Source of the DNA: Ectocarpus siliculosus
Taxonomy: Eukaryota > Sar > Phaeophyceae > Ectocarpales > Ectocarpaceae
Reading direction: 5' to 3'
NCBI GenBank assembly: GCA_000310025.1
Contig: FN649751.1
Span: forward strand, 1,694,779-1,758,778
Length of the DNA: 64,000 nt
Below are positions 15,845 to 64,000 of this stretch, in pieces. Both the position numbers and the translations under genes were made by a program. The notes beneath the pieces were generated by a model. The model saw only the letters and a list, made by a program, of their open reading frames with translations. It ran no database searches and was not told the DNA's origin. Within the stretch, counting starts at the first letter, position 1; every line of letters begins with the position of its first letter.

Positions 15845-16120
15845 CTGGCATTGCCGAACTTCGGTATTGTCAACCGCGCTGTGCAGGCAGGGTGGACGGG
15901 GGCGGGGGTGGGGTGGGGCGAGGGTCACAGCTTGTTTGCAACAACGACCGTGAGCGCAAAGTACATTTTCTAACAATGGGTGAACACGGTTCTTCAACAC
16001 GGACACAAAGAAATCACAACGACAGGATGTCTTATGCTTCCAAACCCAAAGTAGATGGAGGAAACAACACAAACTTACTGAAAAGAGATGAATTTCCAGA
16101 AGCTCCAACTACTCATCGGT

Positions 16121-19129: not shown

Positions 19130-19600
19130 GAGAAAAATCTCCCGAAGAGACAAAAGCTTCCGAAGAGACACAAAGCTCCAGAAGAGGCACAAAGCTCCCG
19201 AAGAGACACAAAGCTCCCGAAGAGGCACAAAGATCCCGAAGAGACACAAAGCTCCCGAAGAGACACAAAGCTCCCGAAGAGACACAAAAGCTCTCGGAGA
19301 GACAATCGCTCTCGAAGAGACACAAAGCTTCCGAAGAGACACAACGCTCCCGAAGAGACACAAAGCTCCCCAAGAGACACAAAGCTCCCCAAGAGACACA
19401 AAATCTGTCTCAGACTCTTTTCTATGATGGAGATGGTTTCGTGGTGTCATATTAAGAAAAAAAAAAAAAAAGCTCTCAGAGAGACATCGCTCTCGAAGAG
19501 ACACAAAGCTTTCGAAGAGACACAAAAGCTCTCGAAGAGAAAAAAGCTCTCTAACAGACGAGAAAAATCTCTCTAAAAGACGAGAAATAGCTCTCTGATA
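19130..19600. repeat. 18-bp minisatellite, interrupted
   Basis: About twenty variants of CCGAAGAGACACAAAGCT run from about 19130 to 19400, and a degenerate continuation runs from about 19472 to 19600. Because 18 bp is six codons, the minus strand stays open and translates to repeats of LFGSFVSLREL type. I regard this as a by-product of the repeat, not a gene. Confidence 0.85.
19401..19471 (+). mobile_element. Short poly(A)-tailed element, copy 2, inside minisatellite
   Basis: AAATCTGTCTCAGACTCTTT, then ATGATGGAGATGGTTTCGTG, then a run of about 15 A. It matches the block at 3863-3934 with a few differences. It splits the 18-bp minisatellite, so it arrived after the array had formed. Confidence 0.6.
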
Positions 19601-19710
19601 GACGAGACGGTTCCAACACCGCCGTTTTCGGCTCCGCCCCTCTCTTTGCTGTGCGTAATCGAGCTTTGAAAATGGCCCAGGGAGGTTATGTAACGCACGG
19701 AAAATCTCTT
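19600..19710 (+). repeat. Dispersed repeat with CGTAATCGAGCTTTGAAAAT, partial copy
   Basis: Shares the order CGAGACGGTTCCAACACCGCC, CGTAATCGAGCTTTGAAAAT and GGGAGGTTATGTAACGCACG with blocks at 22684-22910 and 33575-33725. It is diverged. No open frame is shared. Confidence 0.5.
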
Positions 19711-40100: not shown

Positions 40101-43100
40101 GGTGTCCCCGAAATGCGAGGACAAGGTGGACTATGATGTCATGGTGGACCTGGTGGACCACATCATGAGAACAGAGGGGGACGGGGGCAGCAGGGGAAGC
40201 GAAGGGGGTAGAGGGGGTAGTCAGAATATTTTCAGCAACAGAAATTCGCGTGGCGGCGGCGGCGGCGGCGGCGGCGGAAGGGGGCGTGATGATCGGCAAC
40301 GGGGGGGTGTCGGTGGGTCGGGCAGCAGCGGGGGCTGGTCTCGAGGTGGAGGAGGCCGGGGCAAACAAGGAGCCGGAGGAAACAGCGGCGAAACCGAGCC
40401 CCTGGGGGCTATCTTGATTTTCTTGCCGGGGTTCGCCGAGATCGATCAGCTGGTGAAGGCGCTGCAGAGACACCCAAGGATCGGCCGGGGGGCGCGGGTG
40501 TTCCCCTTGCACTCGTCGCTGCCTTCGAACCAGCAGAAGTCGATCTTCCAGCGCATGCCTGCCGGCGTCCGGAAGATCGTGGTTTCCACCAACATCGCTG
40601 AGACGTCGGTGAGGAGTCCCGACCCAACCCGGGCTGTTGCGACAACGCCTCCTTTTGTGCCATTTCGGTTATGCATCCGTATCGTTGCCAGACACCATGT
40701 TGCACTAGCCTACCACTGCACCACGTTGCGCTGGTCTACCACTGCTGCTGCTGCTGCTGCTGCGTTGCCTGCGTTTAGTTTGATGCGTTGTGAAGCGGAG
40801 GACACTGCTGCGTTTCGCACGTGTCTGGCACACGATATTTCGGTGGTGTGTCGCACGCCAGAACTGCCTGATGTTGCGGGCTTGCCGGGAAGCGTGAACC
40901 AACCGTCGTTTCCCGTGCATGGCCGCTTCATTTTACGGACGCACTACTAATGTCAACACATGCGCTATTTTTCATTTAGTCAACCCTGCTCAGGTTGATG
41001 ACCCCGTAGTCTCGGTTGCGATGAATCCACGTCGCCCCGTCGCTGTGAGCTGAGCCTCATCCAAAGCTGGCGCCGGCGTGCTGCTCTCGCTGCTGCCCTT
41101 TCTTTCCGCGTTTTTTTTTTTGTTTTGTTTCAACCGCGACGGCGACCCATTACGGCAGGTGACGATCGATGACTGCACGCACGTGATTGACGCGGGCCGG
41201 GTGCGAGAGATGCGCTACGACCCCTTGACCCGCATGTCGTGCCTGGTGGAGGTCTGGATATCCAAGGTCGGAGCACGACTAGACCCCTTGAAATACATGC
41301 AATCGTACCGTCGCCGTTATTTTCTTCGAAACCCCGTGGTGCTTGGAGGGGCGAAATGAGAGTAAAACTCCGGTCGCATCCGGCACGACGTTAGATGCAG
41401 CTCGGTCGACACGTCGACTAAATAGTGCTGCGACGCTTAGATACTCAGCACACTGCTCTGTCCGTTCTCGTACGATACGCTTTTTCTAAACTTCCTTTTT
41501 TTGTGTCGTACGGGTGAACGCTGGCAGGCCAGCGGTAGCCAGCGGGCGGGGCGAGCCGGGCGTGTGCGGGCCGGGAAGTGCTGGCGGCTCTACCCCGAGG
41601 CGTTCCACCAAAGCTACATGCCGACGCACACGCTGGCGGAGATGCTGCGGACCCCGCTCGAAGAACTGGTGCTGCAGGTAGGGGTAGCAAATAGTGGTGG
41701 TAGGGGGGGGGGGAGTGCCATGCCGAGTGTGCAGCAATGTGTGATGCCTTTGCGCTGCGTCTCCCTGTTGTGCCCTTGGTGGTCGTTCGTTGTCCTGGGC
41801 AAGGCCAAGGATGGCAGTGAGAGCGCCTGTCGTGGCTACCGCCAACCCTCACACCGGTAGTTCGTAGGGCTGTTCTTTCTAGTCCGATTCGTGCACACAC
41901 CTGTTTTTTTATGATACCGGGGGCCATACAACTACAAACAGCAAGTGGAGTACCTCAAGCTCAGTGATGCGTGGCGGGGTTCTGCCCAGGGTTGACCCCC
42001 CTCCCCGTTTTCACCTGAACGTCCCTGTCACGTGACGCTCTTTGCACGACGCTTCTGTCCGTGCAGGTGCTTCTGCTCGAGCTTGGCTCTCCGGCCGAGT
42101 TCTTGGACAGGGCGGTCGAACCGCCTCCGCCCAAGATGTTGCGCGCGGCGTTGCGCAACCTCGACGACCTTCAGGTGGGGCAGTGTTGCTGTTGGTTGCA
42201 TGGCGTACCGTCATTTCTTGTTCTCTGCCCCTGACGGGGCTGCTGAACCCACTCCGAAGAGTGCACCTTCAAACTCGTCCAGTAACCTAGCGCGTGGGCC
42301 CTCCCCGCTGGCGACGTTGTACCTCACCCTCCGCGTTGGATGCCGCATGTCTTTGATCTATCAGTTGTTCTGAGTCTCTACAACCTCCGTCTTTTTCTAT
42401 CTCTGCTCTCCGCCCCCTCTCGCAGGCCATTATCATCTCCAACAGTACGCCTATCCTCACCCCGCTCGGGTACCACCTGGCCCACCTCCCCATGGATGCG
42501 TGCGTGGGCAAGCTTCTGCTCATTGCGGCAATCCTACAGTGCCTGGACCCAATCCTTACCATTGCGGCTGCGCTGGTAAGTGTGGAACTGAGATTTTGAC
42601 CCGGGTTTCTGTCGTGAGGAATGCGCTGCGTCGTGTTGGTTTTATCCGGGGTTGGGGTTCTCGTGTGTGTGTGCGCGGACCTGAGCCCTCGAGACAACGC
42701 GGGCCGATGTCTCGAACACCCACTACCACGGAATAGAACAGCTGCACGCACGCGTCACGGTGTGTGCTCTGCCAACTTATCGCTCCTCTGCCTCGTTTCG
42801 GCCCGACTAGTGTGTTCCTTCTCTTTTCATGTAAGTTAGCCGCGTTCTCAAAGTTCCTGCCACAAAATTCACGACATACTTTTGGCGTCACTTGGTGTCT
42901 ACGGTACGACTACTCTCGTTAACCAGGCTTTCGTTTCCCGACGGTTGAAGTTTGTTTATTAAGTTCCGATCCGTGAATCCTCCCTCCTGGGGCCATGGCT
43001 GCGACGGGCCAACTCGCCCGCTCGTTGACCGACACGACGTTCCCGGCGAAAAATCGTACGGCAGAGCGACAAGGCACCGTTCCAGCGACCGTTCGGAGAG

Positions 43101-46315: not shown

Positions 46316-48875
46316 AAAAGGACGGCACGTCAGTGTGTTGGCGACAAGCACGCGGGGCTAGCACGGGTTTTGATTGCCTTCGACACGCTTGCTTGTTGTG
46401 TGGTGGTCTGCAAAAGGAGTGTCGTTTGACCTCTTGACCGAGTAGGCAGCGTGGCGCGGTTGGTTAACTTAGGAGAGCCCGCGGAGTGGGCCGGAGATGA
46501 TGCTCTGCTGTTGCAGAGGTTGGGAATTGGTCACCTAGCAGAACGCGCCCTTCCCGAGGTCATTTATTCACGCTTGCTTCACGAACAACAATTTCTACGA
46601 CCGCTCTGCATGTTTGGCAAAGAAGAGGACTACGTTGCGAAGACCTCGGCGAAGACTTCCGTCGCTGACAGGCACCTCCCGCCCGGCGCACGACTTCAAG
46701 GCGATCGCCTACGGCTGCGTCGTGCCGTAGATTACGGTCGCGGCTAATTGAAGGGAAAAGTTAGTTGCATACCGTAACGACACACGATAGTACACGCCCC
46801 CGTGACAATATTTATACGCGTAAGTATTATTAGTTTCATCACCCGGGATATTTTATCTGTTGGTTGTGCGCTATCGTCTGTCATGGTGTTACTTCGTCTG
46901 AAAGTACGCTATTTTTGGACTCGTCTCGAGCCGAAAACAAAGCTTCCAAAGTTCCACTCCAGGTGTCACATTCTCTTGTGCGGGTGTGATATCTTACGTC
47001 ATGTTTACGGTGTTGCAGTCGTGCTATCGTTTCTCGCCCTAGAGAAAATGTTGGACACCATATATATGCATAGCAATAATAGATATGACCCCGTAGTCAT
47101 CTGGGGGCGTGGCCTATCGGAACCACTCGACATTGATTCGTGTATGTTCGTCAAAAAAGTAGGTGTCCAATGTGTTTGACCTCTCTCTCAACTTGTAGAA
47201 CTTCGTTTTGGGTTCACTGGCCTGTGACCGCGGACGTCGTTAGTGCTCGGGTGTAAATGTAGTCTACTGCCATGTTCGGTGTGGTTCCTCCTCCCGACAG
47301 AAAAAAAACATTTGTCGCACGCAGTTCGCTGATTGGTCAACACACCTTCGGCGGAATTTCCAACACCCCCAAAAAAACAGGGCACGACCCAAGATCCTTG
47401 GTCGACGGGCAGCGTCATCCACGGTGAAATCGAGGACGACACCTCAGGGAATGTTGGGAACATCGTGTCTTCTGGTGATGATCTTTCCGCAAAATCATCA
47501 TCTTGGATGACTACCAAAGATGGATGGAGCGATGGGTCCGCCGGCCGACCGATGATCTCCGCGTGCATGTGCTCTCTTATGGGGATCGACCGGGTCGAGT
47601 CGATGTAGACTATACACAGGCCGGGCGGAGAATTGAATGTTGTTGATGTTCCTATCTATGCTGCCTCTCGACTCCATGATTGGGGGATAACAGAATAGTA
47701 TACTGCGTGCCTTTCAACCCTGCATCAATCGTCCTCAGGGTCATTATTGAAGGGGATGGAGTGCGCTGCTACCGTTGGCCCCGCGCAGCGGTACTGCTGG
47801 GTGCTTGTCTTTACTCTGCCAACCCTCGTGTTCGTGCGGAGCGCGCGGCGACCCCAACATTTGTTTTGACCCCAACACCTCCTCCTTGTCAAGGTACACT
47901 GCACCTGCCCATGGGGGCAAAATCAAGAACGAATGGAACAGTAGTCTCCGCCATCCGAACAGCAGACAGGCGATTGTTTTGGACACAGCATAAACCTTTT
48001 GTGTGACCACCGGCTGGAGTACGCGGCACGAATGCTGAAGGCACCGATTTGAAGAGTGATGACAAAAAAAACCCGTGGTACACTGTAGTAGACTAGATCA
48101 ATAGTAGTAGTAGCACCATGGCGACAGAGGCACACTGCCAGAAGCACACTGCCAGACAGTCCTCTGGCATATTGATTTTGCAAGGCGCGCGCGGTCCAAC
48201 AATAACCAACCCAACCGTGCGCCCGTGACACGTCGCACGAGAAAAAGAAAGTGTGCCGGTTCGTTCGTTTCGTCGTTTCACCGTGACACAGCTCGAACGC
48301 CTCGGTGAACTCCCCCAAAGCAGGTATATATTAAAAATCCAAGATCTTACGATCTTACGCATAGGATTCACGCACATCTTCGGCTTTCCCGCAAGAGGAA
48401 GGCTGAAAGGTTGCTGAGTCTCTGTTCTAGGTCTACGGGCTAAGAGAATTGGCACGCAGCAGAAGGAAACCGCCCCGGAGGTGTGGCATCGGGAAAGCAA
48501 AAGCGCTGGTCTACCTTGGGAGAAGTTACCGCGCGCAGCCGACGAGGGTACGTCCTCGTTGAATCTTTCCCTCTCGGGAATTGCTGCGCGATCCGATATG
48601 GGTGTCTTGCCTGAACTTCCAGGCATCACTCTACGCTAGCTATATTAGAGGCGTCGATAGGCGAGCTATGCTACAGGCCTCGATAGCCTGAAAGGTCTGT
48701 CGGGTGTTCGCGCCTCCACCCGCGGTGCATGCCGTCCAATTATTTACGATGACAAACAAACTTGATTTTTTTATCCGACCGATCTTTTAGATTTTATCGA
48801 CACAAAAACACGGTTGTACATATAGAATTCACTCGTTTTGATTGTCCCTCTGGATCGACAGGCGTGGTGGGACCC
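46316..48875. other. Intergenic region between the helicase and the PSI-S74 gene
   Basis: Open frames at 46451-46747, 47188-47608 (both strands) and 48093-48629 (minus) have no domain or phased splice partners. The last 200 bp would hold the promoter of the next gene. No TATA box was assigned. Confidence 0.4.
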
Positions 48876-51800
48876 ATGAAAAGGCTACGCCAGGGGCCTT
48901 CGGGTCGTCCGGCTCCACTGATGGCGGCAATGTACTGGTTACTTGCCCTTGCCTGGGCTGGGCAGCTCGCCGCTGGGCAGGTCTGCGAGGATTTCTCAGT
49001 CGACACAGGAGTATACTGGTGAGTCGGCATCAGAGAGGCATACAACAATTTTAACGATGTTTTCGCTTGCAGTCCAGACAATAAACTAACCATATACACC
49101 AGGTACACACAAAAAAAAGGGTACAAATCCATATGTATTGCTGCATCCATGAGAGCTGTGTCGAAAATTGGTTGTAGCATGTCGATTGCTGCTGGTGCAC
49201 CCGAACTACCAAGACCATCCGTATGTGTGCTGGACTCGACGTTTAGGCATTCTACGGCGCATGCCGAGGTGGGAAACTATGTATCTATGGCAAGAGATGT
49301 GACAATACATTCCACCAGGTTTCGACGAGGTCAGGGTGGCAAAAAAATACAGACTGCGGTAGACTATACAGTAGTAGTCTAATCCACATCCATTCAGCCT
49401 GGTCTTGGAGCCAAGACACTACTGGAAGTTCAACCCGCTGAATCTAGCCAAACGAGTTGACAAGGTGCTACTGAATAGAGATATTTGCAATACAGTACTC
49501 GTCTGTGGTGCTCTTCTCTTCTTGTCGTAAATTATAATACCTCCATTATTTCATGTCCCCCGATCTGCAACAATAACAAAAGGACCGACGTCAGTAACTG
49601 CACGAGCTGTGTTGGCGTGGGAGGCTGCGGCTACTGCTTGTCCACCCTTCAGTGCGTCGACGGGACCTCGAGCGGACCTTCGGATGGATCGCCCTGTCCT
49701 ACCTGGATTTCCGAGCCCGACGTTTGCCCTGGTCAGACTTTGCTTCTTGTTTCATTTGTAGACGATGATTCTATTCCATCGCCCCATCTTCCCGAGGCTA
49801 CCTAGCTATAGTTATTGTCCCGTCTTCTTCTATGTCAATCTTCCCCAACCCCAGTGTATCGGTCACAAATTAGAGCTGGGGTCAGAAAGAAATAAATTTC
49901 TCCCTGCTGTGATCAGTGGCTGACGAATAACGACAAACGTGCCGCCACACAATTTGCTGCATTGGGAGTGGGAGCGATCGGCATATATTATCTACGGTTA
50001 GTCGAAAGGGTGACTCTACAATACATTGCATTCGGACGCTGTGCAATCCCACGTCCTTCGTGTTCTCAATGCTCGTGCTTTCTTTTGTTAACCTACGGTA
50101 TCATGCTTGTGGCCGTTCCATCCCATCTTGCTGCACTTTCCCATTGCGTCAACATAGACCGTATCCGTTCTTCCCAGCTAAATGATATACACGCTTCAAT
50201 CCTGTCAAAGCACACGACTTCGTCGTTTTCGTCCAGTCGAAGTCTACTTCCAGTTTCACACAGGCAAACCCGTGAGCCGCCGATCCCCCCCACGAAACAC
50301 CCAGAGAAACGAAGTACTATAGGATAACCAAGAGTTTCACATCGGAAACATGGTAGAAACGCAAAGCGACCCAGGTGTTGGCGGTGTCAGTATTGCGAGT
50401 AGAACCCGTTTATGGTCTCGAAAAGAAGTGTACCTGGTAGTACAAGATGATCGCTAAGCCAACCAATGAACGCGTGAGATATCACTCTCCTCCTTCCTTG
50501 TGCGGCGCTCGGACACGCACTTGCATCGACACACCCACACTCACAATACAGAGACCCCGAGGTGCGGCGAATACCCCGAGTGCACGACCTGCGCCGAGGA
50601 TGAAGACTGCGCGTGGTGTGCCTCCGAAGGCGCCTGCATGACTGTCTCCGAGATCTTCAGCACGGACTGCCGTGGGACTGTGTTCGACCTTCCGTGTCCG
50701 ACATCCTTCGTGGCAGGTATGAATTACCATACAGGCGGCGATTTGTTTCTCGTCTAAACTGTGCAGGGCGGCCCTATCAAGTGGGATAAATCCAAGGCGT
50801 GGTATGATATACGGTTCCTCGTCTTGAGGCGCTCCTAAAGCTCGCACCCATCGGGTTTGTTTGGCCTGTGAGGCCATCGAGAACAGAGAGTGGTCAGAAG
50901 TATAGATACTCTTTACGCGGAAAGTACAACAACACGAAAAACTAGCCCCCAGGTTTGCAGACGAACAGAACCAGAGAGAATCGTGGCATGAAGACCAGTG
51001 CTCGGTCAAGCAAACTCATAAGAAAACAAACTGAGATATCCTCGCGCTCTCACCGTCGGCCCACCACGTGTTTGCGCAGCAAAGGATGAGTTCATCACAA
51101 CATGCACCTGGTAGTGACGTAACACAAAAAACACACCACTTGCAGTCGTCAAAGAAGACCACCTTGTTAAAAATTCAACCGCGAATGGAAGGCTGTTCCC
51201 GCTGAAGCCACCCTCAACACAAACCTCGAAAGGGAAATGAACCAAAACAAGTTGCTCAACGCAGTGTGGTCATCGTGTGTGCCTTTCCTTCGATTTCTCG
51301 AGGCCTTAGAGGGAAGGACACCCACCAGCCTCCCGGTTTTCCACACCCAAAAGGTTAACCAGTGGTACCCGTGTTGTAGAAATGAGAATACACCCCGTTT
51401 TCAACGGTGTGTGCGACGACCAATTTATTCCGGGCATCAGTTTTACTCTTTTCGGGACGTTTTCTGGACGCATCAGCTCTTCGGTCACACAGGAGGAAAA
51501 AAGCACACACGAGTTTTATTCTTTCTTTGTTCTCCACCTTCCTTATGCGGTGCTTGCCTTAACTTTTATCGCGAGAAGGTTTCGGCCGCTTCCTATCCCT
51601 CGTCGACCGTGACCCGAATTCGTTACGTACACAGACGTTGATCGCCTTCATTGTTTGGACATGTTGTGCTAGAAAAGTCTCAGTTCATATTACGGCGTCG
51701 TGACTCGAACCCACGTTCAAACATCATCAACGTTTGCGAGGTTACCAACTGCAGCACGTCAGCCATTGTCGTGTGACCACGCCAACCGTGCGAACAATGA

Positions 51801-54800
51801 AGCCGTGCGAGGGTCTGTCGTGTCTGGCACCCTAGTCGACTAAAAACAGGTATATTTGGCTCACAGCAAGGACCTCTTCGAGAACTTTACGTTGCTCTCT
51901 TGATAATAATGCTAATAAAAGGGGAACGCGATTGTTTTGAAGTTCTAGTGAAGGGCTTAGTGCCGCCAGCGGGAACAGCAAAACCTGTTGGTGTGTGTTC
52001 TATGCGGAGCTAGGTCTCGAGCCAACAAACCCCAATGGAGAGCAAAGGAACAAAGGCAGAGGGATCAACTAACACTCTCGTTGCCATCGCGGGAAGACAG
52101 CATTGTACCCAATCACAGTGAACATAAAAAGCAAAACAGACTGGACTCGCCTGCTTCATTGGGGTGGGAGAATATCGTGTGAGGGTTTATTTCATTTTGT
52201 GGTCATACTCCTACAGCATCTATTTCATGTAGTGCAGCTTCCGAATGTTTAGGGCAATGGATTCTCCATTCCGAGCATATGTTGTTGGCGCTTTGCTTTC
52301 CCGCCTCTGAGTTTGTTTTTCTGTTGGTCTAAAACCTACGTTTCTTCGTGAGTGTTGGGCTTTCTCATGAGTCTTTTTTTTTTCCCCTTCTGCACTTGTA
52401 TCCTGACTTGGGGTGGGCTGCCGGCCACAGAAAATAGTTTCTTTGCCTTGATGAGTACTGTAAGGAAGAAGAGGTAGGTACGATGCTTGTGAACAACGAC
52501 GACGACGACACGCATACCAGAAAAATACAGAAAGAAAAACTACTGACAAACAAACGTCGAAGGGTACAAAAACACACTGTGAAACACAAAAAATAGACTA
52601 AATAGTCTCTAAATACCGAGAAGTCTTCATAGCGACATCACTAATCTTTTGAGGTATTCCTCTCTTCCTACCGCAACTATTAAACGAAATGCGTGTATGT
52701 TACTCGCCAAAGACAACGATTCTATAACTTGCCAATGAGGTTTGACTACTACATACCTCCCATGCCTGGAAAACAAGCATTGAGCCTCTCGGGAACAGTG
52801 AATGGCGAGTCGGATAGAGTGCGTTTCTCCCGAGTAGCTGCCGGGAGCCCAACGTCGAGTTGTCATCGGCGAAACCGACCAACGCCAACAGCCGCTCTGG
52901 GTGTGCTTGTGAGGGCGGATTTGCACGCAATAGTTGGACAAAGTTCGTCCCACCAACGGGACAACGAAAACATCGGCGAAACCAAGCTTGGCGAAACACG
53001 ACAAAAATTACTCACCAAACCGCAAAACCTTACAAAAAAAACGCTTTCGTGGCGCGAGAATCAAATTTGCTCTCGATTGTTGCCCTTTTGTACGTTCCTC
53101 TGCTACGTGTTGCCCTTATCCTAGGTTAAGAAACAGTTTTATTTCGAGTCGGTGTTCTTTGTGTTGGTGGTTTACCAGTCTTCCTCATGGGTATCATTCA
53201 ACCCTCGTTTCTTCGCGAAAGCCTCGTTGGCCAATAACCGTTTTCAGATGTTTGTCGTGGCGCCCGCCAAACTGTCGCCGGTATTCGTACACACGCCTTC
53301 TGCTTCTTAAATTGCCTGGACGGTGTGATTTGATCTAGGCTACCTTGTAGTTTTCTCTGATGTCACCATACACCTGATTTCGGTATAACGAGGTCTGAAA
53401 GTCTGATCGAAGTAACAACGCGTTTAACAATAAACACAAGGTACTCTTTCGTGGGCGTCTTTTCTTACCCCGTCATGAGCAACAAAACCGGAATAATCGC
53501 ATCAAAAACGGGAAAAAAGCAAAGGGAGAAGGTCAAAGCCTACCCAAGCTCTCACGACAACAACCTAGCCAACAATAGCGCAAATTAGTCACACGCGAGT
53601 ACGCGAGAGAAGACCAACTCACCACGTGATTCTACGTGCTATTGGACTCTCAACCCTGCACCATGGGGCCCCTATCCATCCCGACACAAAACATCAGGCC
53701 TTCATCTGCTTCATTTTCCTTGCACACTTCTGTTTCACGGTGTGCCCTGTTTGCACCAGCCAGAAAATATTTCAGCAGTCAGTCGACCTTATGCATTACT
53801 GATGAAAACATTTTTCGAGCGCGCGTTCTGCTTCGACGAATGGTAGACTTGAGTCTTCAACGTTCTCACCTGTGTCAATTTGACTTGTTGGCGTTTCATA
53901 CACTCCACAGCACGTGGTGTTATTACAACATCAGCATTTATAGCCAGGGTAAATAAACTCGCAAGCATGCATTGCGATGGTTGATGGTCGTGGCTATCAA
54001 GATTAGAGTCAAGTGGTGAAAACGCTCGCCCAATAATTGGAATTCGGGAACAGAGTCCAGCGACTGCAGTCTGACATGTTGTTCGATGGGGACATCAACC
54101 TGTACATTGGGCAGCCTTGAATTCAATTCACATCGGCGCCAAAAATGTCAAGGTCGAAAGAGAAATCGAGTCCACTTCGGCGAACTTCTAGTCGCTTACC
54201 CCACACTCCGAACTATTGTAACCGGCTGGTTGAATGTTTCATGCGTCCAGTCTATCCCAATTGTGAGGGTTTAAGGCAACGCACCCAGCAGACTGCCTTG
54301 GTAATATACAAGGGAAGGTAGCGCCAGCTGCTACAACCCCCGGCGGGTGAGAATACCGGGTTGCTTTTCCCGTTCCAAACACTGCATGCAGTGGCGATGC
54401 GCTGCTGCAGCACAACAGTGCAAAAGAGTGAGGAGGTCGTAGTTTAGTTCATCATATCGGTTGCCAAAGCGGCATGTACTTCCACGATGGAGGGCGGCAT
54501 TCAACACAAACTTAAAACTCCCGACTACATATTGTTTCCGGGCCCACAATGCGCTCTTGATGTACATCTTCAAAGCCACGGCAAGATCTGTCTTTTGTAG
54601 TCGACTTTAATTTATAGAACTTTTTTATGAACAAACACCACCCTCAATCCAGCTCCGTGTTTTGATTACTCTTCTCGAGTGTGTGTGTGATAGAGAGTCT
54701 GCAAAAAGTCTGCTCGCGTGTGGGTAGAGTAGTTGGGGAACCACCTAAAACGGCGGTGCACACCAGAGTTTGAAGGATGTGGCCAATTTTCTCGACGAGG

Positions 54801-57800
54801 TGAATCAATCGCAAGACAGGTCTAATGCCTCCGCCTTAATAGCAAGGTCCTTACGGAGAAAAGAATTGTTTTATTGGTGCGCGAGTTGCCCAGCTCGCTG
54901 GACAGGGAGAACGAATGGTACACCTTTCAAGGACAAAATACGCTGCAAATGCCTCGAGTTGCCTGTGTGTATCAATTACGCCATTAGGTTAATGCATACC
55001 ACTTGTTGTCTGACCCCGGCATATTTTGTTAGTGATCACAGCTGCACTCACCCGAGTGTGAAGAAAGAGAAAAAGCAACCCAGTCCTCGAAAATAAGTTT
55101 CCTCAACAGCGGACCGAAGAAATGACCTGGCTCATTCACTCCGGGAACGTGATACACGCCGCCGACGGCCTCCCGGTTAACATCCACAAAGGGCACCTCT
55201 GTGTTTTGGTAGAACCTGGAAATCGTTTTTTGCAACTGCATGAGCCATAGACTATGATGCTGCTCGCGACAAACAAGGTAGTTCGAAGTACAATCGGTCT
55301 TACTCGGAATAGTTTTACCGCAGCGAACACGGGCGATTTCACCATGCAAAACAAACGACTCCCAGTAGTTTGCTGAAATATTGCGGCATAGCCCTGAGAC
55401 ATGGTCCGACCACAAACTCTCCTATGTACTGAGAAATCGGGTGATGTTCGCTCTTCTCGTGCATTGGGTGCGCCCCGATTGGCTCCAAAGGACCCTTTGT
55501 ACATCAGCGTTGCCGATGAGTGACGGGCTCCTCTAACCCGTCGTACCAACTCAAAGGCCTGGGAAACACACCACAATCCTTTTTCCCACGAAAGGCAATA
55601 GTATGGTCGCGTTGCATCATTGTTACCACCGTCATCCTTCAGCTTTCTCATCCTCACATCGTTGAATACGTACTCTTTCTTGGCATTCCCATCAACAGAA
55701 AACCGGCTCGTGGGTAACCTCATCATAGAGGCCGACCCCCAGTTCGGTGGCGGCCAGCTTTCGGCGTCGGGCACGACTGAAAGTGGCGACATTTTTTCCC
55801 TATCTCTGAACGACACCACGTTTCGGGTCCAATCTGGTGGCAACGCGAGTATTCTATCCGCCAACTCGATTAACGCCAACGCCGCCGGAGGAAGCTTGTC
55901 GCTCTCTGCTGGTGACGGGGTCAACCCTATCGGGGGAAGCGGCGGGGGCGTTTCCATCACCGGTGGGGGCGCTGAGGGACTTGAGGCGTTCGGGGGGGAA
56001 GTCGGCGTTGGCGGAGGCATAGAGGTCACCGGGGGCTCTTCCGTGGAAGGCAAAGGTGGAGGCGTGAGCATCAGCGGGGGCACTAGCGAGAGCGGAGAAG
56101 GGGGAGATATCTCTCTCGCCAGCGGGTCGAGCGAGGGCATCGCTTCCGGGCAAGTGGAAGTTGGCTCAGGGGTCGGCCAGGGCACCGCTTCCAGCGGCGG
56201 CGTCTCCGTTTCGTCTGGTGAGTCTCTGTCGAACAGCACTGGGTCGCTCGTCCTTGGAACCGGTGCGGCCACGAACGGCGAGGCGGGCTTCATCAGCATC
56301 ACCGTCGGGGCCACGGGCATCGGTCAAGGTTCCGATGTCTCCGTTACGGCGGGCGAAACGACCGACACAAGCTCCGACGGGGGTAGTGTGCGCATCAACT
56401 CTGGATACGCGTTCAACGGCTCTAGCGGCGGCTTGTACCTACAGACGGCCAACAGCGGCACCGCGGGTTCTAGCGGGGACCTACTTTTGAGAACAGGTGC
56501 CGCGAGCGCCGCGGACTCAGGCTCGATCTCGCTGATCACAAACTCAGCCGTCGGCGGCAAGGGCGGACAGATCAGCCTCGCGGTTGGCAGTGGTGACAGC
56601 GGGGAGGGTGGTTCCGTGTACATCACCGCAGGCAACACCGCCGCGCCTTCGTCTGCCGGAGGAGGCGTGCTGATTACGGCTGGTGCGGGGACGGACACAA
56701 CGTCCTACGCCGGCGGCTTAGGTGGTCCCGTAACAATTACAGGTGGCGAAGCGTTCGGCCAGGGACTTTCTGACGTGGGCGGGATGGTGACTGCTACGGG
56801 TGGCTACGCTGCGGCGAGCACCGGTGGAGCCCTGCTCCTTTCCACGGGTGTCGGCAGGCTTACTTCGAGCGGTGCGGCGACATTGACCACCGCAAACGCC
56901 GGGGCCTTGGGTGTTAGCGGAATGGTGAAGCTTCTCACTGGAACGTCCTCAGCCGGGAACACAGGCGAGATCCTGATCCAATCAGGTGATGCTACGGGCG
57001 GCGGTGGAGGAGACATTCGCATGTCCGTCGGAAGTGGCGATTTGGGAGTGGGAGGGTGGGTGGTCATCGACGCAGGTACGAGCAGCCATCAGACTGGTGG
57101 AGGGGTATCGATTTCCGGTGGCTCGGGAACGACAAGCTCTAGCGGCGATATCCTGATTCGAACGATGAATGCGGGCCCAAAGGGCGTGTCTGGGTCGATC
57201 GTTCTGAGCACGGGACAGGCCACCGACGGAAGTGCCGGAGATATCGAGTTTCAGACAGGATCCTCCACGGATGGAGATGCGGGGGACATTGTCTTCAGCA
57301 TCGGCGGTGCTGACCTGGTCGGCTCCGGTGGCGATATTGAGTTTATGGCGGGAAACACGAGCGCCGTGGACGGTGTTGGCGGAGCTGTATTGCTCGGTGC
57401 GGGCGACGGGACCAACGCAGAAGGCGGTGCTGGCGGCACTGTTTCAATTTCTGGTGGCGGTGCTTCAGGAACGGAAGCCGGCGGCGGCACCGGAGACGGC
57501 GGGGCCATTGTTCTTGCCGGCGGATCCGCTATCGACGGAGCTGGCGGGGCGGTTTCTCTGGTAGGCGGTACGAGCTCAACGGGTACAGGAGGCACAATCG
57601 AGCTTCGTAGCGGCGCAAGTGACGTGTCTGCCAGCGGAGCCGTGTACGTGTCTACCACAAACGCAGTTGGTTCTGCTTCGAGCGGCTCCATCGCCATCTC
57701 CACTGGGACTTCCAGCAGCGGCGACTCTGGCACGGTGCTGCTCGGCTCTGGGGCGGCGGTAGATGGGGCCGGAGGCGCTGTTGGGGTTTTCGTCGGTGCG

Positions 57801-60800
57801 GGTGGCACTGGCGACGGTGGAGATCTTTTCCTGTACGCAGGTGACACTTCGGCTGTCGGAGCGCGAGGAGGCACCGTGTTCGTTACCGCTGGCGAGGGCT
57901 CCAGTGTCGACGAAGGAGACGGGGGTGACGGGGGCCACGTCATTGTGCAGGGTGGAAGCTCGAGAGGAACGTCAGTGCTGGACCGCGGCGGGACCGTAGA
58001 GATTGTGGGCGGCGATTCTGTGGCTGGGCGGGGCGGAGGGATCAGCGTCCAATCTGGCACAAGCGTCGACGGGTCCAGCGGTCCCATTGCTCTCGCGACA
58101 TCTCCATCAGGATCTGACGGTGCAAGCGGTGACGTTTCCGTGTCCACCGGTGAGTCCTCTGCAGCCACATCAGGATCTATCTTTGTCAACACGGGTGCAG
58201 CCACCGCTGGAGCCGGAGGGTCAATTTATTTGTCCGTCGGCGAAGGTGATTACGAGGACGGCGGAAGCGTTCAAATTTCCGCCGGCATGACAAGCGCCGT
58301 CGGCGGAGTGGGTGGGCATGTATCTATCGAAGGCGGGCAAGGATCGAGTCCCCATCAGACTGACGGTGGCGACGGCGGAGAAGTGAGCATTCTAGGTGGC
58401 GCCGCTAAAGGTCAAGCAGGTAGCGACGACGGCGGCCGTGTAACTCTGGACGGTGGCAGGTCCTTCGCCGGTAGCGGTGGTGACGTGTTGATCAAATCTG
58501 GTTTGAGCACGCTGAGATCCAGCGGATCCATCGCGGTGGACACTGGGGACGCTGGCGCACAGGGATCTAGCGGTGATGTGTCTATCCGAACTGGTACCAC
58601 GAGCTACGGCTCGAGCGGCAGCGTTTCCCTTTCGACAGGGGATGCCCAGATTGGAGGTGGAGGAAACATTGCTATCCGCGTGGGCGACGGTGACTCGGGA
58701 GCTGGCGGAGGCATCGAGCTAACGGCGGGCACCACAATCGACAAGGCTTCCGGCGGAAATGTCCTTATCGCGGGCGGGTACAGCAGTCACACCTCGAGCG
58801 GAACGATCATGCTACGCACTATGAACGCAGGGGGTGCTGGAACTAGTGGGGGGCTTCTGCTCTCCACGGGAACCTCCAGCCGCGGCGGGAGTGGGACTGT
58901 TCAACTAGTCACAGGGGCTGCCGAAGACGGGTCTGGTGGCGATATTCTCGCCGCTGTGGGATCTGGACACACCGGAGACGGAGGTGACGTCATCCTGGCA
59001 GCGGGAGAAACAAGCGCGCTGGAAGCGGCAGGTGGCGACGTTCTCATTGTTGCCGGGGAAGGAAGCAGCCGGGACCGTTACAACGGCGGCGACGGTGGAC
59101 GCGTTCAGATTTTCGGCGGGGCGGGTCAAGGAGGCGCCTTGGGAGACGACGGCGGGAACATTGAGCTCTCCGGTGGATTCTCACGCCGAGGCAAGGGCGG
59201 GGAGATTCAAATCCGGACCGGTTACGGAGAGCACAGCTCAAGTGGACCCATGCGCTTATCAACTGCGAATGCCGGCGAATCTGGAACGAGCGGTGGCATG
59301 TTTATTCACACCGGCACATCAAGTCAAGGCAACTCTGGGGCGATCCGCTTTAAAACCGGCGAAGCCGTTCACGGTCGTGGCGGCAACTTCGAGGTAAGCG
59401 TCGGGACCGGCGACTCCGGCGACGGGGGCGACATCATCCTTGTCGCCGGAGATACGCACGGGGACAGCGGTGGTGACGTTTCGATTCGCACTGGACACTC
59501 ATACGGATCGACCAGCGGAGATCTGATTCTGCAAACCGTCAACGCCGGACAGCACGGGAACAGTGGGCGAGCTGTTCTTTCTACCGGTCACAGTCCCGAC
59601 GGCGGTTCGGGTGCGCTTGTTCTTAACACAGGGGACGCTGGTGGTGGTCCTGGTGGCAACATCGAATTATTTGTGGGGACTGGTGCGGAACAAAACGGCG
59701 GGGCTGTGATGTTGCGGGCCGGAGATGCCACGGCAAAAGGAAGGCGTGGGGGTGACATTCTGATGGCGGCGGGGGACGGGCTCAGCACAGCGAAAGGGAA
59801 CAGCCACGGCAGTGGTGGAGATGGCGGGTCCGTTTTTATTGATGCAGGGCGAGCGAGTGGATTGGACGCAAAAAACGATCCGGGTGGGAACATCGAACTC
59901 ACTGCAGGTCCCGCAGCTGCCGCCACCGGTGGCTCCCTCCTCTTGCAGTCGGGTTCTGGCGAAGCGTCATCTAGCGGGCAAATCGTCATCCTCACACCCG
60001 ATTCTGGGCCAACCGGAGTGAGTGGTGACGTCGTGTTGTCCACGGGATCATCAGCCTCCGGTGACGCTGGATCTCTACTTTTGGGCACTGGCGCGGCGGT
60101 GGCGGGGGCTGGGGGAGCCGTGATAGTTGCTGCAGGACCTGGATCGGGCCCCAAAGGAGGTGCCGTGAACATCACTGCAGGCGAGTCCAGCGCTCGGCTA
60201 GGAGTCGGCGGTGCGCTGTCACTAGCAGCTGGTGCCGGCACGAATCGACATGGTGCGGGCGGCGGACGAGGAGGTAGCGTCGATGTCGAAGGCGGTGAAG
60301 CTAGCGGTGGAAAACCGACGGATACAGGAGGAACGGTGAGTTTGTTAGGAGGATCCGCCGCTAAAGGTACTGGAGGGTCTATCGTTATTGCCACCGGCGC
60401 AAGCAAAGACGCGACGAGCGGATCGGTGCGGGTTGTCACCGCAAGCGCAGGCCGCTCTGGCTCCAGTGGGTCCATTGCAGTATCCACCGGGAATTCCACG
60501 CGTGGTGAGTCAGGAGAGCTGACTCTAGCAACCGGGCGCTCGAGTGCAGGCGCGGGAGGCGGCATAGCCCTTGCCGTTGGACCTGGGACTGCAGGAAAGG
60601 GTGGCGACGTGAACATTTCTGCAGGGGCAACTGAGTCTATTTCGGGCCACACAGGAGGCGCAGTTAGGATTCAGTCTGGCCAAAGCTGGCACGGGTCCAG
60701 TGGTGGCGTGGGTGTTCATACCCCAAACGCTGGGAAGAACGGAAAAAGTGGCAACGTCCGTCTATCCACGGGAGGTTCGCTGTCTGGTCCCGCCGGGTCA

Positions 60801-63800
60801 GTCCTTGTTTCAACTGGAAACGCTTCCACCAGCGGTGATATCGTTGCACGGGTTGGTATTGCAGCGGCTTCGGATGGCGGCCAGGTCAGGATCACGGCTG
60901 GTGATACCGAAGGTTCTGCCAAAGCGGGTGGCGCGCTACGACTGCAAGCGGGTCAAGCATCTCATGGAGAGGGAGGGGACGTATCGATATCGGCTGGGAC
61001 AGGAACAGGAGACGAACGACACGGTATTGATGGGGCCGGTGGTTCGGTCAGAATCAACGCCGGGCGAGGCACGGTCGGTCCTGGCGGCGGCGTTGAGATT
61101 TTTGGCGGGTCTTCTGACGATGACCAGTCGCGTGGTCGTCGCAAGGATGGCACTAGCGCAAGTGAAGCGGGCGGAGACGTTACTCTCAAGGCGGGGTCGG
61201 GCAGTGATGGTGCCGGAGGGAAGCTAGTAGTTCGCCCCGGAGCAGGTGGAGTTACCAACGGGACGGTCAACATTCAGGCATCGACAGGAGTGGGACGCAT
61301 CGTCACTTCTGATGACAGCGTCTCTCTATCCAGTGGTATCGACGGCGGGATCTATCTGGCGGTACCCCCGGGTGACATCGCCACGAACAACGTTATTGGA
61401 TTCAGCATTGACAACCCCATGGACGACAATGTCGAGTACGACTTCCGGTTGCAACAATTCGAAGGCGGAGAATCGCGCGTGGTGTCCAGCGTCCCACTCC
61501 AGGTCACGACCATCGAGTACTCGTCTGACGAGCGGATAAAGGAAAGCATCATTGACGTCGATGTCGACGATGTTCTCCAGCGTTTTATGGAAGTGGAGAT
61601 GGTGGAGTACGCCTACACGGAAGAGTGGCGCCAAGCTCGAAACTTGGGAGAAAACGCTCGCGTCCGAGGCGTGATCGCTCAGCAGCTGGCCGAGGTCTTT
61701 CCGGAGCATGTGGAGGTCATACCCGAGTTCGAGCTGCCCGACAAGGACTTTGCAATCAGCGATTTCCTCCAGGTGGACAAGGTTTCGCTTACGCTTGATC
61801 TCATATCGGCCATACAGTCTCAACACAAGCACTATAGCTTTGGACCAAACTCCGGCGACAAGAGTGGCGACATCACAGTCGCCACCGAAGCTGGCGGATC
61901 ATACGCGAATGCTGACCCTACCGGTGCCAGCGGTTCGGTTCTTATCTCTACCGGTACGGCCTCGTTGGGCGACAGTGGATCGATCACCCTGGCCACCGGA
62001 CCAGGAGCAGAAGGGGGCAAGTCTGGAAATGTCAGTATCCAAGTAGGTCGCACCCTTGAATACGGCCCCCAAGTCCAGATGACGGAGTTGGGCGTCCGCG
62101 TTTCCGCCGGGCAGCAGATCGATCCTTTACAGCCCGGACGTGCGGTCGAGATATCTGCAGGGTCAACGGCACCTTCCGATGGAGGACCCTCTGGAGACGG
62201 TGGAGTGCTAATGTTGCTTTCGGGTAATAGTACTGGAGATGGTGGTACGGGGGGAAGCATCGTGGTGAGGCCCGGGAGAGGCGGACTGCTGAATGGTACC
62301 GTTGAGATACAGTCGTCAACGGGAACCCAGCGTATCGTAGCTACGGAAAACGACGTGAATGTGACCAGCGGTATCGACGGCGGGATCTATCTGGCGGTAC
62401 CCGCGGGTGACATCGCCACGAACAACGTTATTGGATTCAGCATTGACAACCCCATGGACGACAATGTCGAGTACGACTTCCGGTTGCAACAATTCGAAGG
62501 CGGAGAATCGCGCGTGGTGTCCAGCGTCCCACTCCAGGTCACGACCATCGAGTACTCGTCTGACGAGCGGATAAAGGAAAGCATCATTGACGTCGATGTC
62601 GACGATGTTCTCCAGCGTTTTATGGAAGTGGAGATGGTGGAGTACGCCTACACGGAAGAGTGGCGCCAAGCTCGAAACTTGGGAGAAAACGCTCGCGTCC
62701 GAGGCGTGATCGCTCAGCAGCTGGCCGAGGTCTTTCCGGAGCATGTGGAGGTCATACCCGAGTTCGAGCTGCCCGACAAGGACTTTGCAATCAGCGATTT
62801 CCTCCAGGTGGACAAGGTTTCGCTTACGCTTGATCTCATATCGGCCATACAGTCTCAACACAAGCACTATAGCTTTGGACCAAACTCCGGCGACAAGAGT
62901 GGCGACATCACAGTCGCCACCGAAGCTGGCGGATCATACGCGAATGCTGACCCTACCGGTGCCAGCGGTTCGGTTCTTATCTCTACCGGTACGGCCTCAT
63001 TGGGCGACAGTGGATCGATCACCCTGGCCACCGGACCGTCGGAGTATGGCGGCGAAGCCGGAAGCATCCACCTTCGTGTCGGAGAGGAGAACACAGGGTC
63101 TACCACGCTCAGTATATCCCCTTTGGACATGCATCTATCAGCTGGCGACCAGACTGAGCCCAACAAAGCAGGAGGAACTATTGAGATATCGGCGGGGAAT
63201 GCTTTACCACCGGGGGGTGGTGACGTGTCAGGCACAGGCGGCTCGCTCATACTCAGAGCGGGGAACAGCACAGGCACGGTAGGGGGCGGCGGATCCATCG
63301 AACTGTTGGCCGGCTCTTCCCAAGGAGGTGACGGGGGTGATATGGTTCTATCCTCTGGGGCTGGGAGCACCTCACTGAGAGGGAGAGACAGTGGTCACGC
63401 CATTTTATCGACGGCCGACGCACAGAATGACAGGGGTTCCAGCGGGGAAGTGCAAATTGAAACTGGTTCCAGTTTTTCTGGGGATACGGGAGCAATTCGC
63501 ATGAGTACTGGAAACGCCACGCTCGGATCAGGCGGGGGGGTGTCCATGGCGGTTGGCAATAGCGCAAGCGGAGCCGGTGGCTCCGTCGATTTTTTCGCTG
63601 GGAACACTACCGCTGATGACGAACCGGGAGGATCAATTATACTGTCGGCGGGATCCGGCACGAGCAGAGAAGGTGGTGGGGGGGGGAATGTTACTCTGAC
63701 CGCCGGTGTAGGATCTGGGGGAATAGGCGGATCTGTGTCAATTCTAAGCGGAGAGGGTGTCGGTGCTACAAGTGGTGCAATTGACATTCGCTCGCTTGAC

Positions 63801-64000
63801 GCTGGTGCTGCCGGTGTTAGCGGATCGCTTGCGCTGCGCTCAGGTTCCTCGGGGTCGGGTAGCTCAGGATCGATTAGCATCGGTTCCGGGCAGGCGGACG
63901 GGGGAAGCGGCGGCGCGGTGGATATTTCAGTTGGCAGCGGCAACAGTGGATCGGGAGGAACGTTATCGCTGCGCGCTGGTGATACCTACTTATTCACGGG
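48876..64000 (+). CDS. Secreted PSI-domain protein with 15-residue beta-repeats and two S74 autoprocessing domains (3' end beyond window)
   Basis: Exon 1 (48876-49018) starts MKRLRQGPSG and has a signal peptide core MYWLLALAWAGQLAAG. Exons 49583-49731 and 50552-50716 each encode a PSI/plexin-like cysteine module (CTSCVGVGGCGYC; CTTCAEDEDCAWC). All phases match, including the jump across a 4,982-bp intron into an exon open from 55699 to the edge. An optional exon at 49398-49464 (YWKFNPLNLAKRVDK) does not fit in phase. The giant exon encodes over a hundred 15-residue units such as SSGDVSIRTGTTSYG. It is interrupted by two peptidase S74 domains with SDERIK at codons 61524 and 62559 and GVIAQQLAEVFPEHVEV downstream. 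S74 domains trimerise phage fibres and MyRF and then cut themselves at the Ser of this motif. I infer a self-cleaving extracellular beta-solenoid fibre. About 2,900 residues lie in the window. Confidence 0.85.
50717..55698. other. Large intron of the PSI-S74 gene
   Basis: It starts GTATGA after codon-phase 1 and ends CCATCAACAG before a phase-1 entry. Open frames inside (51237-51641, 52693-53124, 54331-54579 minus, 54770-55096 plus) show no certain domain. The last has a WCASCPARWTG cysteine/tryptophan stretch that could be a worn transposase zinc finger. Further small exons cannot be excluded, but none is needed for phase. Confidence 0.5.
51691..51775 (-). tRNA. Possible degenerate tRNA-like sequence
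   Basis: On the minus strand GCTGCAGTTGGTAACC resembles a D arm. AAACG-TTGATGA-TGTTT forms a five-pair anticodon stem with a seven-base loop (anticodon would be GAT). GTGGGTTCGAGTCAC resembles a T arm. The acceptor stem does not pair well and the T stem has mismatches, so a pseudo-tRNA or tRNA-derived SINE is more likely than a working gene. Confidence 0.25.
61336..62002 (+). repeat. S74-containing duplicated segment, copy 1
   Basis: 667 bp from GTATCGACGGCGGGATCTAT to GGCCACCGGACC. It is repeated at 62371-63037 with an exact offset of 1,035 bp (345 codons, in frame). By eye only two differences were seen: near 61369 (Pro versus Ala) and near 61949 (silent). Confidence 0.95.
62371..63037 (+). 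repeat. S74-containing duplicated segment, copy 2
   Basis: Copy of 61336-62002. The 368 bp between the copies encodes unrelated 15-residue-type repeats and the sequence GTVEIQSSTGTQRIVATEND, which resembles the short linker GTVNIQASTGVGRIVTSDD before copy 1. Confidence 0.95.

What the first reader, a model, noticed from the sequence alone, without database searches (positions are those of the whole stretch)
48876..64000. Algal secreted protein joining PSI modules, >100 fifteen-residue repeats and phage-fibre-type S74 chaperones
The sequence shows a signal peptide, two cysteine-rich PSI exons and an uninterrupted exon of at least 8.3 kb coding Gly/Ser/Thr units with a 15-residue period and hydrophobic residues spaced as in beta-solenoids. 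Two S74 domains are embedded in it. S74 domains are established in phage tail spikes, where they drive trimerisation and then self-cleave, and in animal MyRF. A very large eukaryotic secreted protein of this build is, to my knowledge, not characterised. A self-assembling extracellular fibre, adhesin or wall protein is a reasonable inference.
Basis: partly seen in the sequence, partly recalled or inferred. Interest (0 to 1): 0.92.

Follow-up and report, generated by a model that had tools for sequence, protein, structure and literature searches.

The report
Giant algal fibre protein with S74
A brown alga carries a gene for an enormous, probably secreted protein built from hundreds of short repeats, with a self-cutting folding domain best known from phage tail fibres placed inside the repeat array; it looks like an undescribed family of fibre-type proteins with relatives elsewhere.

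Summary
One uninterrupted frame of 4416 codons (55602-68849, 4.8 kb past the window) encodes a cysteine-free Gly/Ser/Thr array with a 15-residue period (209 motifs; shuffles mean 15, maximum 25). It holds two Peptidase_S74 modules (E 1.4e-25) that keep the Ser-Lys dyad; their DNA copies are 99.55% identical. Upstream, a signal-peptide-like exon and two Cys-rich exons join it in frame. Exon 3 is a PSI domain above cut-off; exon 2 alone is not. The giant frame has no Met before codon 395, so it needs an upstream exon. Six other proteins, all partial or unnamed, share the build array-S74-array. Across 12 modules the Lys is kept in 12 and the nucleophilic Ser in 9; each protein keeps at least one Ser. 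Best reading: a secreted, self-assembling fibre in which internal S74 modules trimerise and register solenoid rods, some self-cleaving, some only clamping. Nearest solved S74 by sequence: MyRF. Nearest system in function: Bdellovibrio MAT fibres, where the S74 is terminal. Structure prediction never ran. Trimerisation, cleavage, transcript and location are untested. Eight literature searches found no paper on the family.

The parts
48876..49018 (+). exon 1: start codon, basic n-region and hydrophobic stretch (signal-peptide-like), donor CTG|GTGAGT
   Evidence: read from sequence; in-frame chain; best 10-residue hydrophobicity 1.84, against 1.77 for the best of 15 single-exon ATG-to-donor candidates in the right phase in 48500-55690
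49583..49731 (+). exon 2: Cys-rich, PSI-like
   Evidence: in-frame chain; not detected as PSI on its own, but two PSI stretches are counted in the whole spliced model
50552..50716 (+). exon 3: PSI (plexin repeat) domain, donor CAG|GTATGA
   Evidence: 26.4 bits, cut-off 23.1; found once in the genome
50717..55698 (+). proposed intron 3, 4982 bases
   Evidence: the stretch 50800-55500 matches elsewhere in the genome only over an old dispersed repeat at about 51423-51779; acceptor TCTTGGCATTCCCATCAACAG
55699..64000 (+). giant exon (continues to 68849 outside the window; open frame from 55602)
   Evidence: 4416 codons without stop, 0 Cys, first Met at codon 395
55890..61241 (+). array 1: 94 motifs of 15-residue period; larger units of 148 or 92 residues
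61335..61523 (+). conserved stretch of about 63 residues before S74 module 1
   Evidence: alignment with the other eight modules of P0001-P0004
61524..61844 (+). S74 module 1; Ser at 61524 and Lys five residues on (S-D-E-R-I-K)
61932..62276 (+). short array between the S74 modules (5 strict motifs)
62370..62558 (+). conserved stretch before S74 module 2
62559..62879 (+). S74 module 2, same protein sequence as module 1
   Evidence: copies 61330-62002 and 62365-63037 are 99.55% identical over 673 bp
62967..64000 (+). start of array 3 (continues to about 68798 outside the window; 110 motifs in all)

Best explanation
A host gene of a brown alga for a giant secreted structural protein. After signal-peptide removal the chain carries one or two Cys-rich PSI-type modules, then hundreds of 15-residue coils that most likely stack into long beta-solenoid rods. 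Internal S74 modules bring three chains together and fix their register, as S74/ICA domains do in phage fibres, Bdellovibrio fibres and MyRF. Where the Ser-Lys dyad is kept, as in both window modules, the trimeric module can cut the chain just before the Ser. Where the Ser is lost, as in some modules of relatives, it would act only as a permanent trimer clamp. The product would be a rigid extracellular fibre or wall/adhesion protein. SHOWN: domains, period, dyad, reading frame, protein-level constraint among copies, relatives. INFERRED: solenoid fold, trimerisation, cleavage, secretion, location, splicing.
For: S74 in both modules. Dyad spacing S-x4-K as in MyRF S587/K592 (mutation of either stops cleavage) and the equivalent endoNF S911/K916 (PMC8326128 passages); SDxxxK is also the working motif of Bdellovibrio Bd3182 (PMC10769870 passages). 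Strict 15-residue period. Frame of 4416 codons. dN/dS 0.24-0.36 in four close array comparisons and 0.16 in the S74 pair, which has only 3 differences. The array-S74-array layout recurs in six other proteins, though P0008 has a single strict motif before its S74. At least one Ser-bearing module in each of the seven S74 proteins. PSI exon, in-frame chain and no usable Met in the giant frame. Recognised neighbours are host-type: helicase frame upstream, kinase and DEP domains downstream.
Against: No structure, transcript or localisation evidence. The frame breaks at about 68.85 kb and continues in another frame into a 4108-base N gap, so the 3' end is not assembled. Exon 2 alone is not recognised as PSI. 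An internal self-cleaving module would cut the long chain, an odd thing for a single fibre. A 296-residue array stretch matched no solved-structure sequence at E<=10 and no phage record (BLAST's low-complexity filter was on). One old array-unit pair gave dN/dS 0.44 and two gave no value.
Confidence: 0.55

Rival explanations
1. The PSI exons are a separate small secreted protein, and the giant array exon belongs to another gene with an unseen first exon.
For: The proposed intron is 4982 bases; without splicing exon 3 runs into a stop about 14 codons after 50716 (read), so a short protein is possible. Pfam shows no PSI in P0002-P0008, though all look like partial gene models or fragments. The best alternative start in the intron is almost as hydrophobic as exon 1 (1.77 against 1.84).
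Against: The giant frame lacks a Met for 394 codons and has an acceptor at 55699 in the phase of exon 3; among 15 single-exon in-phase candidates none looked more like a signal peptide (multi-exon starts were not scanned).
Confidence: 0.2
2. A viral fibre gene: an endogenous polinton-like or giant-virus element, whose S74 is for virus assembly.
For: [quoted passage not shown] endogenous giant viruses are known in brown algae (abstract of PMC13236599 in the listing).
Against: Proposed introns, PSI and signal-like exon; the S74 is internal; the same paper excepts ochrophytes from the PLV S74 rule; 20 neighbouring frames gave helicase, Helitron, kinase and DEP matches and a few weak ones but no viral capsid or packaging family, though many frames were not scanned; pattern-limited scans of viral contigs gave 0 relatives with one sequence and 3 distant ones with the alignment. 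The S74 may still have come from a virus long ago.
Confidence: 0.08
3. A secreted, single-chain repeat adhesin in which the S74 modules are inherited remnants that neither trimerise nor cut.
For: 3 of 12 modules lost the Ser; the terminal helix is followed by the array again and lacks the coiled-coil-like tail of the two phage proteins read here.
Against: 31 alignment columns are invariant over eight modules; Lys kept in 12 of 12; each S74 protein keeps a Ser-bearing module.
Confidence: 0.2
4. A decaying gene: the array is a pseudogene kept open by repeat homogenisation.
For: Frame change at about 68.85 kb; broken array copies at C461, C23 and C356; frame shifts in C161.
Against: 4416 codons open; dN/dS 0.24-0.36 among close array copies; the frame changes lie in near-identical repeats, where assembly errors are common (inference).
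Confidence: 0.1

Closest known systems
Bdellovibrio mosaic adhesive trimer (MAT) fibres, S74 subgroup (e.g. Bd3182)
   Same: Cellular, signal-peptide-bearing, beta-helical fibre proteins with S74; Bd3182 self-cleaves at S782 in an SDxxxK motif and its full-length model is a trimeric fibre of about 550 A (PMC10769870 passages). The nearest published system in function.
   Different: There the S74 is the terminal domain; here it is internal and repeated, in a far longer 15-residue array, with PSI-type exons, in a eukaryote. No sequence comparison with a MAT protein was run; the bacterial genome scan confirmed no relative.
[quoted passage not shown]
   Same: Best match among solved-structure sequences (7dc3, E 8e-8 with one sequence, 4.5e-12 with the profile); Ser-Lys spacing; S74 inside the chain; the match reaches into the C-terminal helix region.
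   Different: No DNA-binding domain found by Pfam; 15-residue arrays on both sides; signal-peptide-like start; two modules here, one to three in relatives.
Phage tail spikes and fibres with C-terminal S74 (endosialidase endoNF, T5 L-shaped fibre, GA-1 gp12)
   Same: S74 homology (PHROG tail fibre families, best E 4.9e-16); fibrous region before the S74.
   Different: There the S74 is a chaperone that is released (PMC8326128 passages); here it is internal and repeated; a 296-residue array stretch had no phage match.
Polinton-like virus modular fibre proteins with Peptidase_S74
   Same: Very large chains with S74 in protist genomes (PMC12220804 passages).
   Different: Single, often C-terminal S74 with laminin/collagen-type modules in the passages seen; ochrophytes excepted.
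Lagenidium giganteum hypothetical protein N0F65_003511 (P0005)
   Same: Array of the same Gly/Ser/Thr style (33% identity over 55% of the query part; 30 strict motifs).
   Different: No S74 match; the gene model also carries weak importin-like matches, probably a mis-joined model (inference).

Membership tests
Peptidase_S74 / ICA domain (Pfam PF13884) | profile score above the curated cut-off | tested here: met
   89.8 bits against 22, two stretches; 52.6 bits each in the genome search
Peptidase_S74 / ICA domain (Pfam PF13884) | Ser-Lys catalytic dyad with spacing S-x4-K | tested here: met
   both window modules S-D-E-R-I-K; in the whole set Ser kept in 9 of 12 modules, Lys in 12 of 12; the module count does not rest on the Lys motif, as Pfam stretches (2, 3, 3, 1, 1, 1, 1) and a separate core motif give the same 12
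Peptidase_S74 / ICA domain (Pfam PF13884) | homotrimer formation and self-cleavage before the Ser | not testable with these tools
   needs protein; structure prediction answered busy at all 21 attempts
Phage-type or MAT-type S74 fibre | S74 at the C-terminus | tested here: not met
   1990 codons follow module 2 in the same frame; array motifs on both sides in all 7 S74 proteins, one motif only before the S74 of P0008
MyRF transcription factors | DNA-binding domain upstream of the S74 | tested here: not met
   S74 is the only Pfam match at E<=1 in the 2793-residue window part
MyRF transcription factors | transmembrane helix after the S74 | not tested
   no predictor run; the chain returns to the Gly/Ser/Thr array soon after the S74 (read)
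PSI (plexin repeat, PF01437) | profile score above the curated cut-off | tested here: met
   exon 3 alone 26.4 bits against 23.1; 0 of 6 shuffles of the PSI region match PSI
PSI (plexin repeat, PF01437) | second PSI in exon 2 | tested here: inconclusive
   no match for exon 2 alone at E<=1, but two stretches are counted in the whole model
Beta-solenoid fold | stacked coils of constant length | tested here: inconclusive
   15-residue period is clear; no structure could be predicted; no sequence match to a solved structure
Polinton-like virus element | viral capsid, packaging or integrase genes beside it | tested here: inconclusive
   none among 20 neighbouring frames scanned with Pfam, 18 of them in the window; one search lists 95 frames of 130 residues or more

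The most novel reading that the evidence does not exclude
Some stramenopiles, and perhaps other eukaryotes, build an extracellular fibre from a chain of solenoid rods joined by internal S74 clamps. The disposable terminal chaperone of phage fibres has become a permanent, repeated part of the fibre. Ser-bearing modules cut the precursor at set places to make trimeric rods of defined length; Ser-less modules hold rods together. Loss of the Ser module by module sets the fragment pattern of each species.
Probability: 0.3. Interest if true: 0.87.

Novelty: new variant of a known kind. Interest (0 to 1): 0.68.

Why it matters
In eukaryotes the S74 domain is known in print mainly from MyRF/MrfA transcription factors; among cells it has a fibre role in Bdellovibrio. 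A secreted eukaryotic family that uses it inside giant repeat fibres would be a new structural use, with a ready test: one Ser-to-Ala change per module. Protein parts of the brown algal extracellular matrix, zoid surfaces and adhesives are poorly known next to the polysaccharides (recalled), so a giant rod-like secreted protein is a concrete candidate. Ser-bearing and Ser-less modules within one family form a natural experiment on when trimeric self-cleavage is needed.

Tried and rejected
Viral origin of the locus: looked for viral neighbours and viral relatives. The single-sequence scan gave 0 relatives of 8 pattern matches, the alignment scan 3 of 57, at 27-36% identity; the two that I opened (L040, L042; L041 was not opened) carry a terminal S74 and look like phages. 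Rejected as a present-day viral gene. Bacterial genomes: 96 pattern matches, none confirmed. These scans find only what fits the patterns made from the query; that one search found nothing does not show absence, as Bdellovibrio has S74 fibres. Phage records: 11 of 50,697 match the S74 at E<=0.01, best 47 bits; none match the array stretch.

Alternative first exon inside intron 3: 15 in-phase candidates, none convincing, the best nearly as hydrophobic as exon 1. Transposon or nested gene as the cause of the long intron: only an old dispersed repeat found. Origin of the S74 from phage or from a MyRF-type gene: the tree of 15 modules puts MyRF (a printed stretch of 7dc3, with Ala at the Ser position) and two phages together on long branches (support 87) and cannot decide; the five phage loci fetched gave no match to my pattern and were dropped before that tree. 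Grouping of the window modules with module 1 of P0002/P0003 is weak (FastTree 0.92; ultrafast bootstrap 51).

C-terminal domain at the end of the C161 copy: no Pfam (E<=10) or PHROG (E<=1) match, and only weak solved-structure matches (E 1.5 and above). Literature: 8 searches gave no paper on this family; no link to mastigonemes or wall proteins was found. Of five papers I saw passages only (PMC8326128, PMC12220804, PMC12906663, PMC3742443, PMC10769870); of all others only the search listing with the start of the abstract.
Full report
WHAT IS THERE. The window lies in a 7.08-Mb contig (C26) of a 189-Mb genome of 492 contigs. The EsV-1-7 Cys motif, not found in 14 control genomes, gave 880 first-look candidates, of which the 150 scored all passed the cut-off. 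That this motif is expanded in brown algae is recalled knowledge; on it I take the organism to be a brown alga. The giant frame runs from 55602 to 68849 in window numbering, 4416 codons without a stop. It has no cysteine, 24% Gly, 14% Ser, 11% Thr, and its first Met is codon 395; its calculated mass is about 410 kDa.

THE ARRAY. The motif G/S-x-h-x-h-x-[small or other]-G occurs 208 times (non-overlapping) or 209 times (overlapping count), against a mean of 15 and a maximum of 25 in 200 shuffles. Of 208 successive distances, 114 are exactly 15 and 26 are 31 residues. In those 114 units of 15, positions not used to pick them are also set: position 10 is Ser, Gly, Ala or Thr in all, position 13 Gly in 71% and position 15 Gly in 73%. 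Larger units of 148 and 92 residues recur. This fits one short strand and two tight turns per coil of a solenoid (inference). At about 0.48 nm per coil, a value recalled for beta-solenoids, 209 coils would make a rod of about 100 nm. From about 65.85 kb the array becomes a set of near-identical blocks, 95-98% over 618-1792 bp in the seven largest array pairs.

THE S74 MODULES. Pfam finds S74 twice. The two modules with their flanks are copies of 673 bp at 99.55% identity, 1035 bp apart, so the duplication or its homogenisation is recent. Each is preceded by a conserved stretch of about 63 residues. The Ser and Lys match S587/K592 of MyRF, where mutation of either stops cleavage, and S911/K916 of endoNF (passages of PMC8326128); a second paper calls the pair absolutely conserved in its alignment (passages of PMC3742443); a third gives SDxxxK as the S74 catalytic motif (passages of PMC10769870). 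Among solved-structure sequences the best match is MyRF 7dc3 (E 8e-8; with the family profile 4.5e-12), then a phage neck appendage protein, 3gud (0.44; with the profile 0.0059).

RELATIVES. Three searches of a 5.8-billion protein set, each limited to candidates of a length range and sharing words, gave seven proteins. P0002 and P0003 carry three S74 modules each, P0004, P0006, P0007 and P0008 one each. All six have array motifs on both sides of the S74, though P0008 only one before it; P0006-P0008 sit on contigs of 2.1-2.3 kb. P0005, from the oomycete Lagenidium giganteum, has the array but no S74 match. The other six are unnamed, so how wide the family reaches is open. In 12 modules (two here, identical in protein, and ten in relatives) the Lys is kept in 12 and the Ser in 9; P0002 module 3 has Ala, P0003 module 2 Ala and module 3 Asp; each S74 protein keeps at least one Ser. 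My first count used a motif that contains the Lys; Pfam stretches and a separate core motif give the same 12. Modules 1, 2 and 3 of P0002 and P0003 pair off (support 98, 95, 100), so the three-module state is older than their split; the Ser was lost in module 3 of both and in module 2 of P0003 only, which means at least two losses.

THE 5' END. Exon 1 codes a signal-peptide-like start. Exons 2 and 3 are Cys-rich. Exon 3 passes the PSI cut-off alone; exon 2 does not; 0 of 6 shuffles give PSI. The chain is in frame at all three junctions, but 90 of the enumerated site combinations are open, so exact borders are uncertain. The PSI exons and the start of the giant exon each occur once in the genome. 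The intron before the giant exon matches elsewhere only over one old dispersed repeat.

THE 3' END. The frame changes near 68.85 kb and goes on in another frame to an N gap at 69996-74103; no array match is listed after it. A contig of 88 kb, C161, ends in the same kind of array and runs out of it into a C-terminal domain that occurs once in the genome. As the N-terminal part was found only on C26 and the C-terminal part only on C161, they may be two ends of one gene split by assembly (inference); the longer array matches between them are only about 85-88% identical, so a paralogue is not excluded. Broken array copies lie on C461, C356 and C23.

IS IT A LIVING GENE. Of eight comparisons of array or S74 copies, the four close array pairs gave dN/dS 0.24-0.36, the S74 pair 0.16 on only three differences, one old unit pair 0.44, and two old pairs were saturated and gave no value. 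This fits protein-level constraint. No transcript data were available.

CONTEXT. I scanned 20 neighbouring frames with Pfam (18 in the window, 2 downstream); many others were not scanned (95 of 130 residues or more are listed). Matches: a helicase C-terminal domain (39484-40947), Helitron-type pieces (8760-10489), kinase and DEP domains downstream, and a few weak matches; no viral structural family.

MECHANISM. S74/ICA domains trimerise, help the upstream stalk to fold, and then cut before the Ser (passages). In phages and in Bdellovibrio MAT fibres the S74 is terminal and is split off; here 1990 codons of array follow module 2. The likeliest reading is that S74 modules start and register trimer formation at internal points of a very long chain, and that Ser-bearing modules then cut it into rods whose C-terminal piece begins with the S74. 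Ser-less modules would keep the rods joined. The PSI modules, disulphide-rich, would be the anchoring or binding end (inference).

NOVELTY. Domain membership in S74 is clear; membership in the phage- or MAT-type terminal class or in MyRF is not, since a defining feature of each was tested and not met. Eight literature searches found no description of such a protein in algae or oomycetes; the library lacks most subscription papers. The nearest published systems are the Bdellovibrio MAT fibres and the large S74 fibre proteins of polinton-like viruses.

LIMITS. No structure prediction (21 busy answers), no trimer test, no transcript, no localisation, 3' end unassembled, relatives mostly unnamed and partial.

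Noticed in passing
outside the window: G000:C161:78393-88310 (L030, L031): Second large array running off a contig end, with a C-terminal domain of about 110-160 residues, found once in the genome, that matches no Pfam or PHROG family; may be the 3' end of this gene.
   Followed up: partly
G000:C461:14-22 kb, C356:9-12 kb, C23:2152-2155 kb (L032-L035): Array copies broken by stops and frame shifts; the S74 and N-terminal searches listed nothing there; look like decayed relatives.
   Followed up: partly
G000:C185:6294-6404 and 13574-13684, C3:2070734-2070844, C25:2729411-2729545 (L003-L006): Four further S74-like partial matches (27.9-29.6 bits, over the cut-off, 33 of 58 profile positions); three lie in 61-residue frames and score almost alike, perhaps a dispersed element carrying an S74 remnant.
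   Followed up: no
window 8760-10489, minus strand: Helitron-type replication pieces (Helitron_like_N, best E 4.5e-27).
   Followed up: no
window 16119-17441: Tandem repeat of a 485-bp unit, 2.8 copies, 96% matches.
   Followed up: no
window 19135-19607: Short tandem repeats of 19-22 bp.
   Followed up: no
window 51423-51779: Old dispersed repeat inside the proposed intron, 69-88% identical to 40 other places scored in the genome, a lower bound.
   Followed up: no
window 39484-40947, plus strand: Frame of 488 residues with a helicase C-terminal domain, upstream of the gene.
   Followed up: no
downstream, joined coordinates 78245-79009 and 83012-85405 (L008, L009): Two protein kinase frames, the second also with a DEP domain: probably a host gene beside the array gene.
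   Followed up: no
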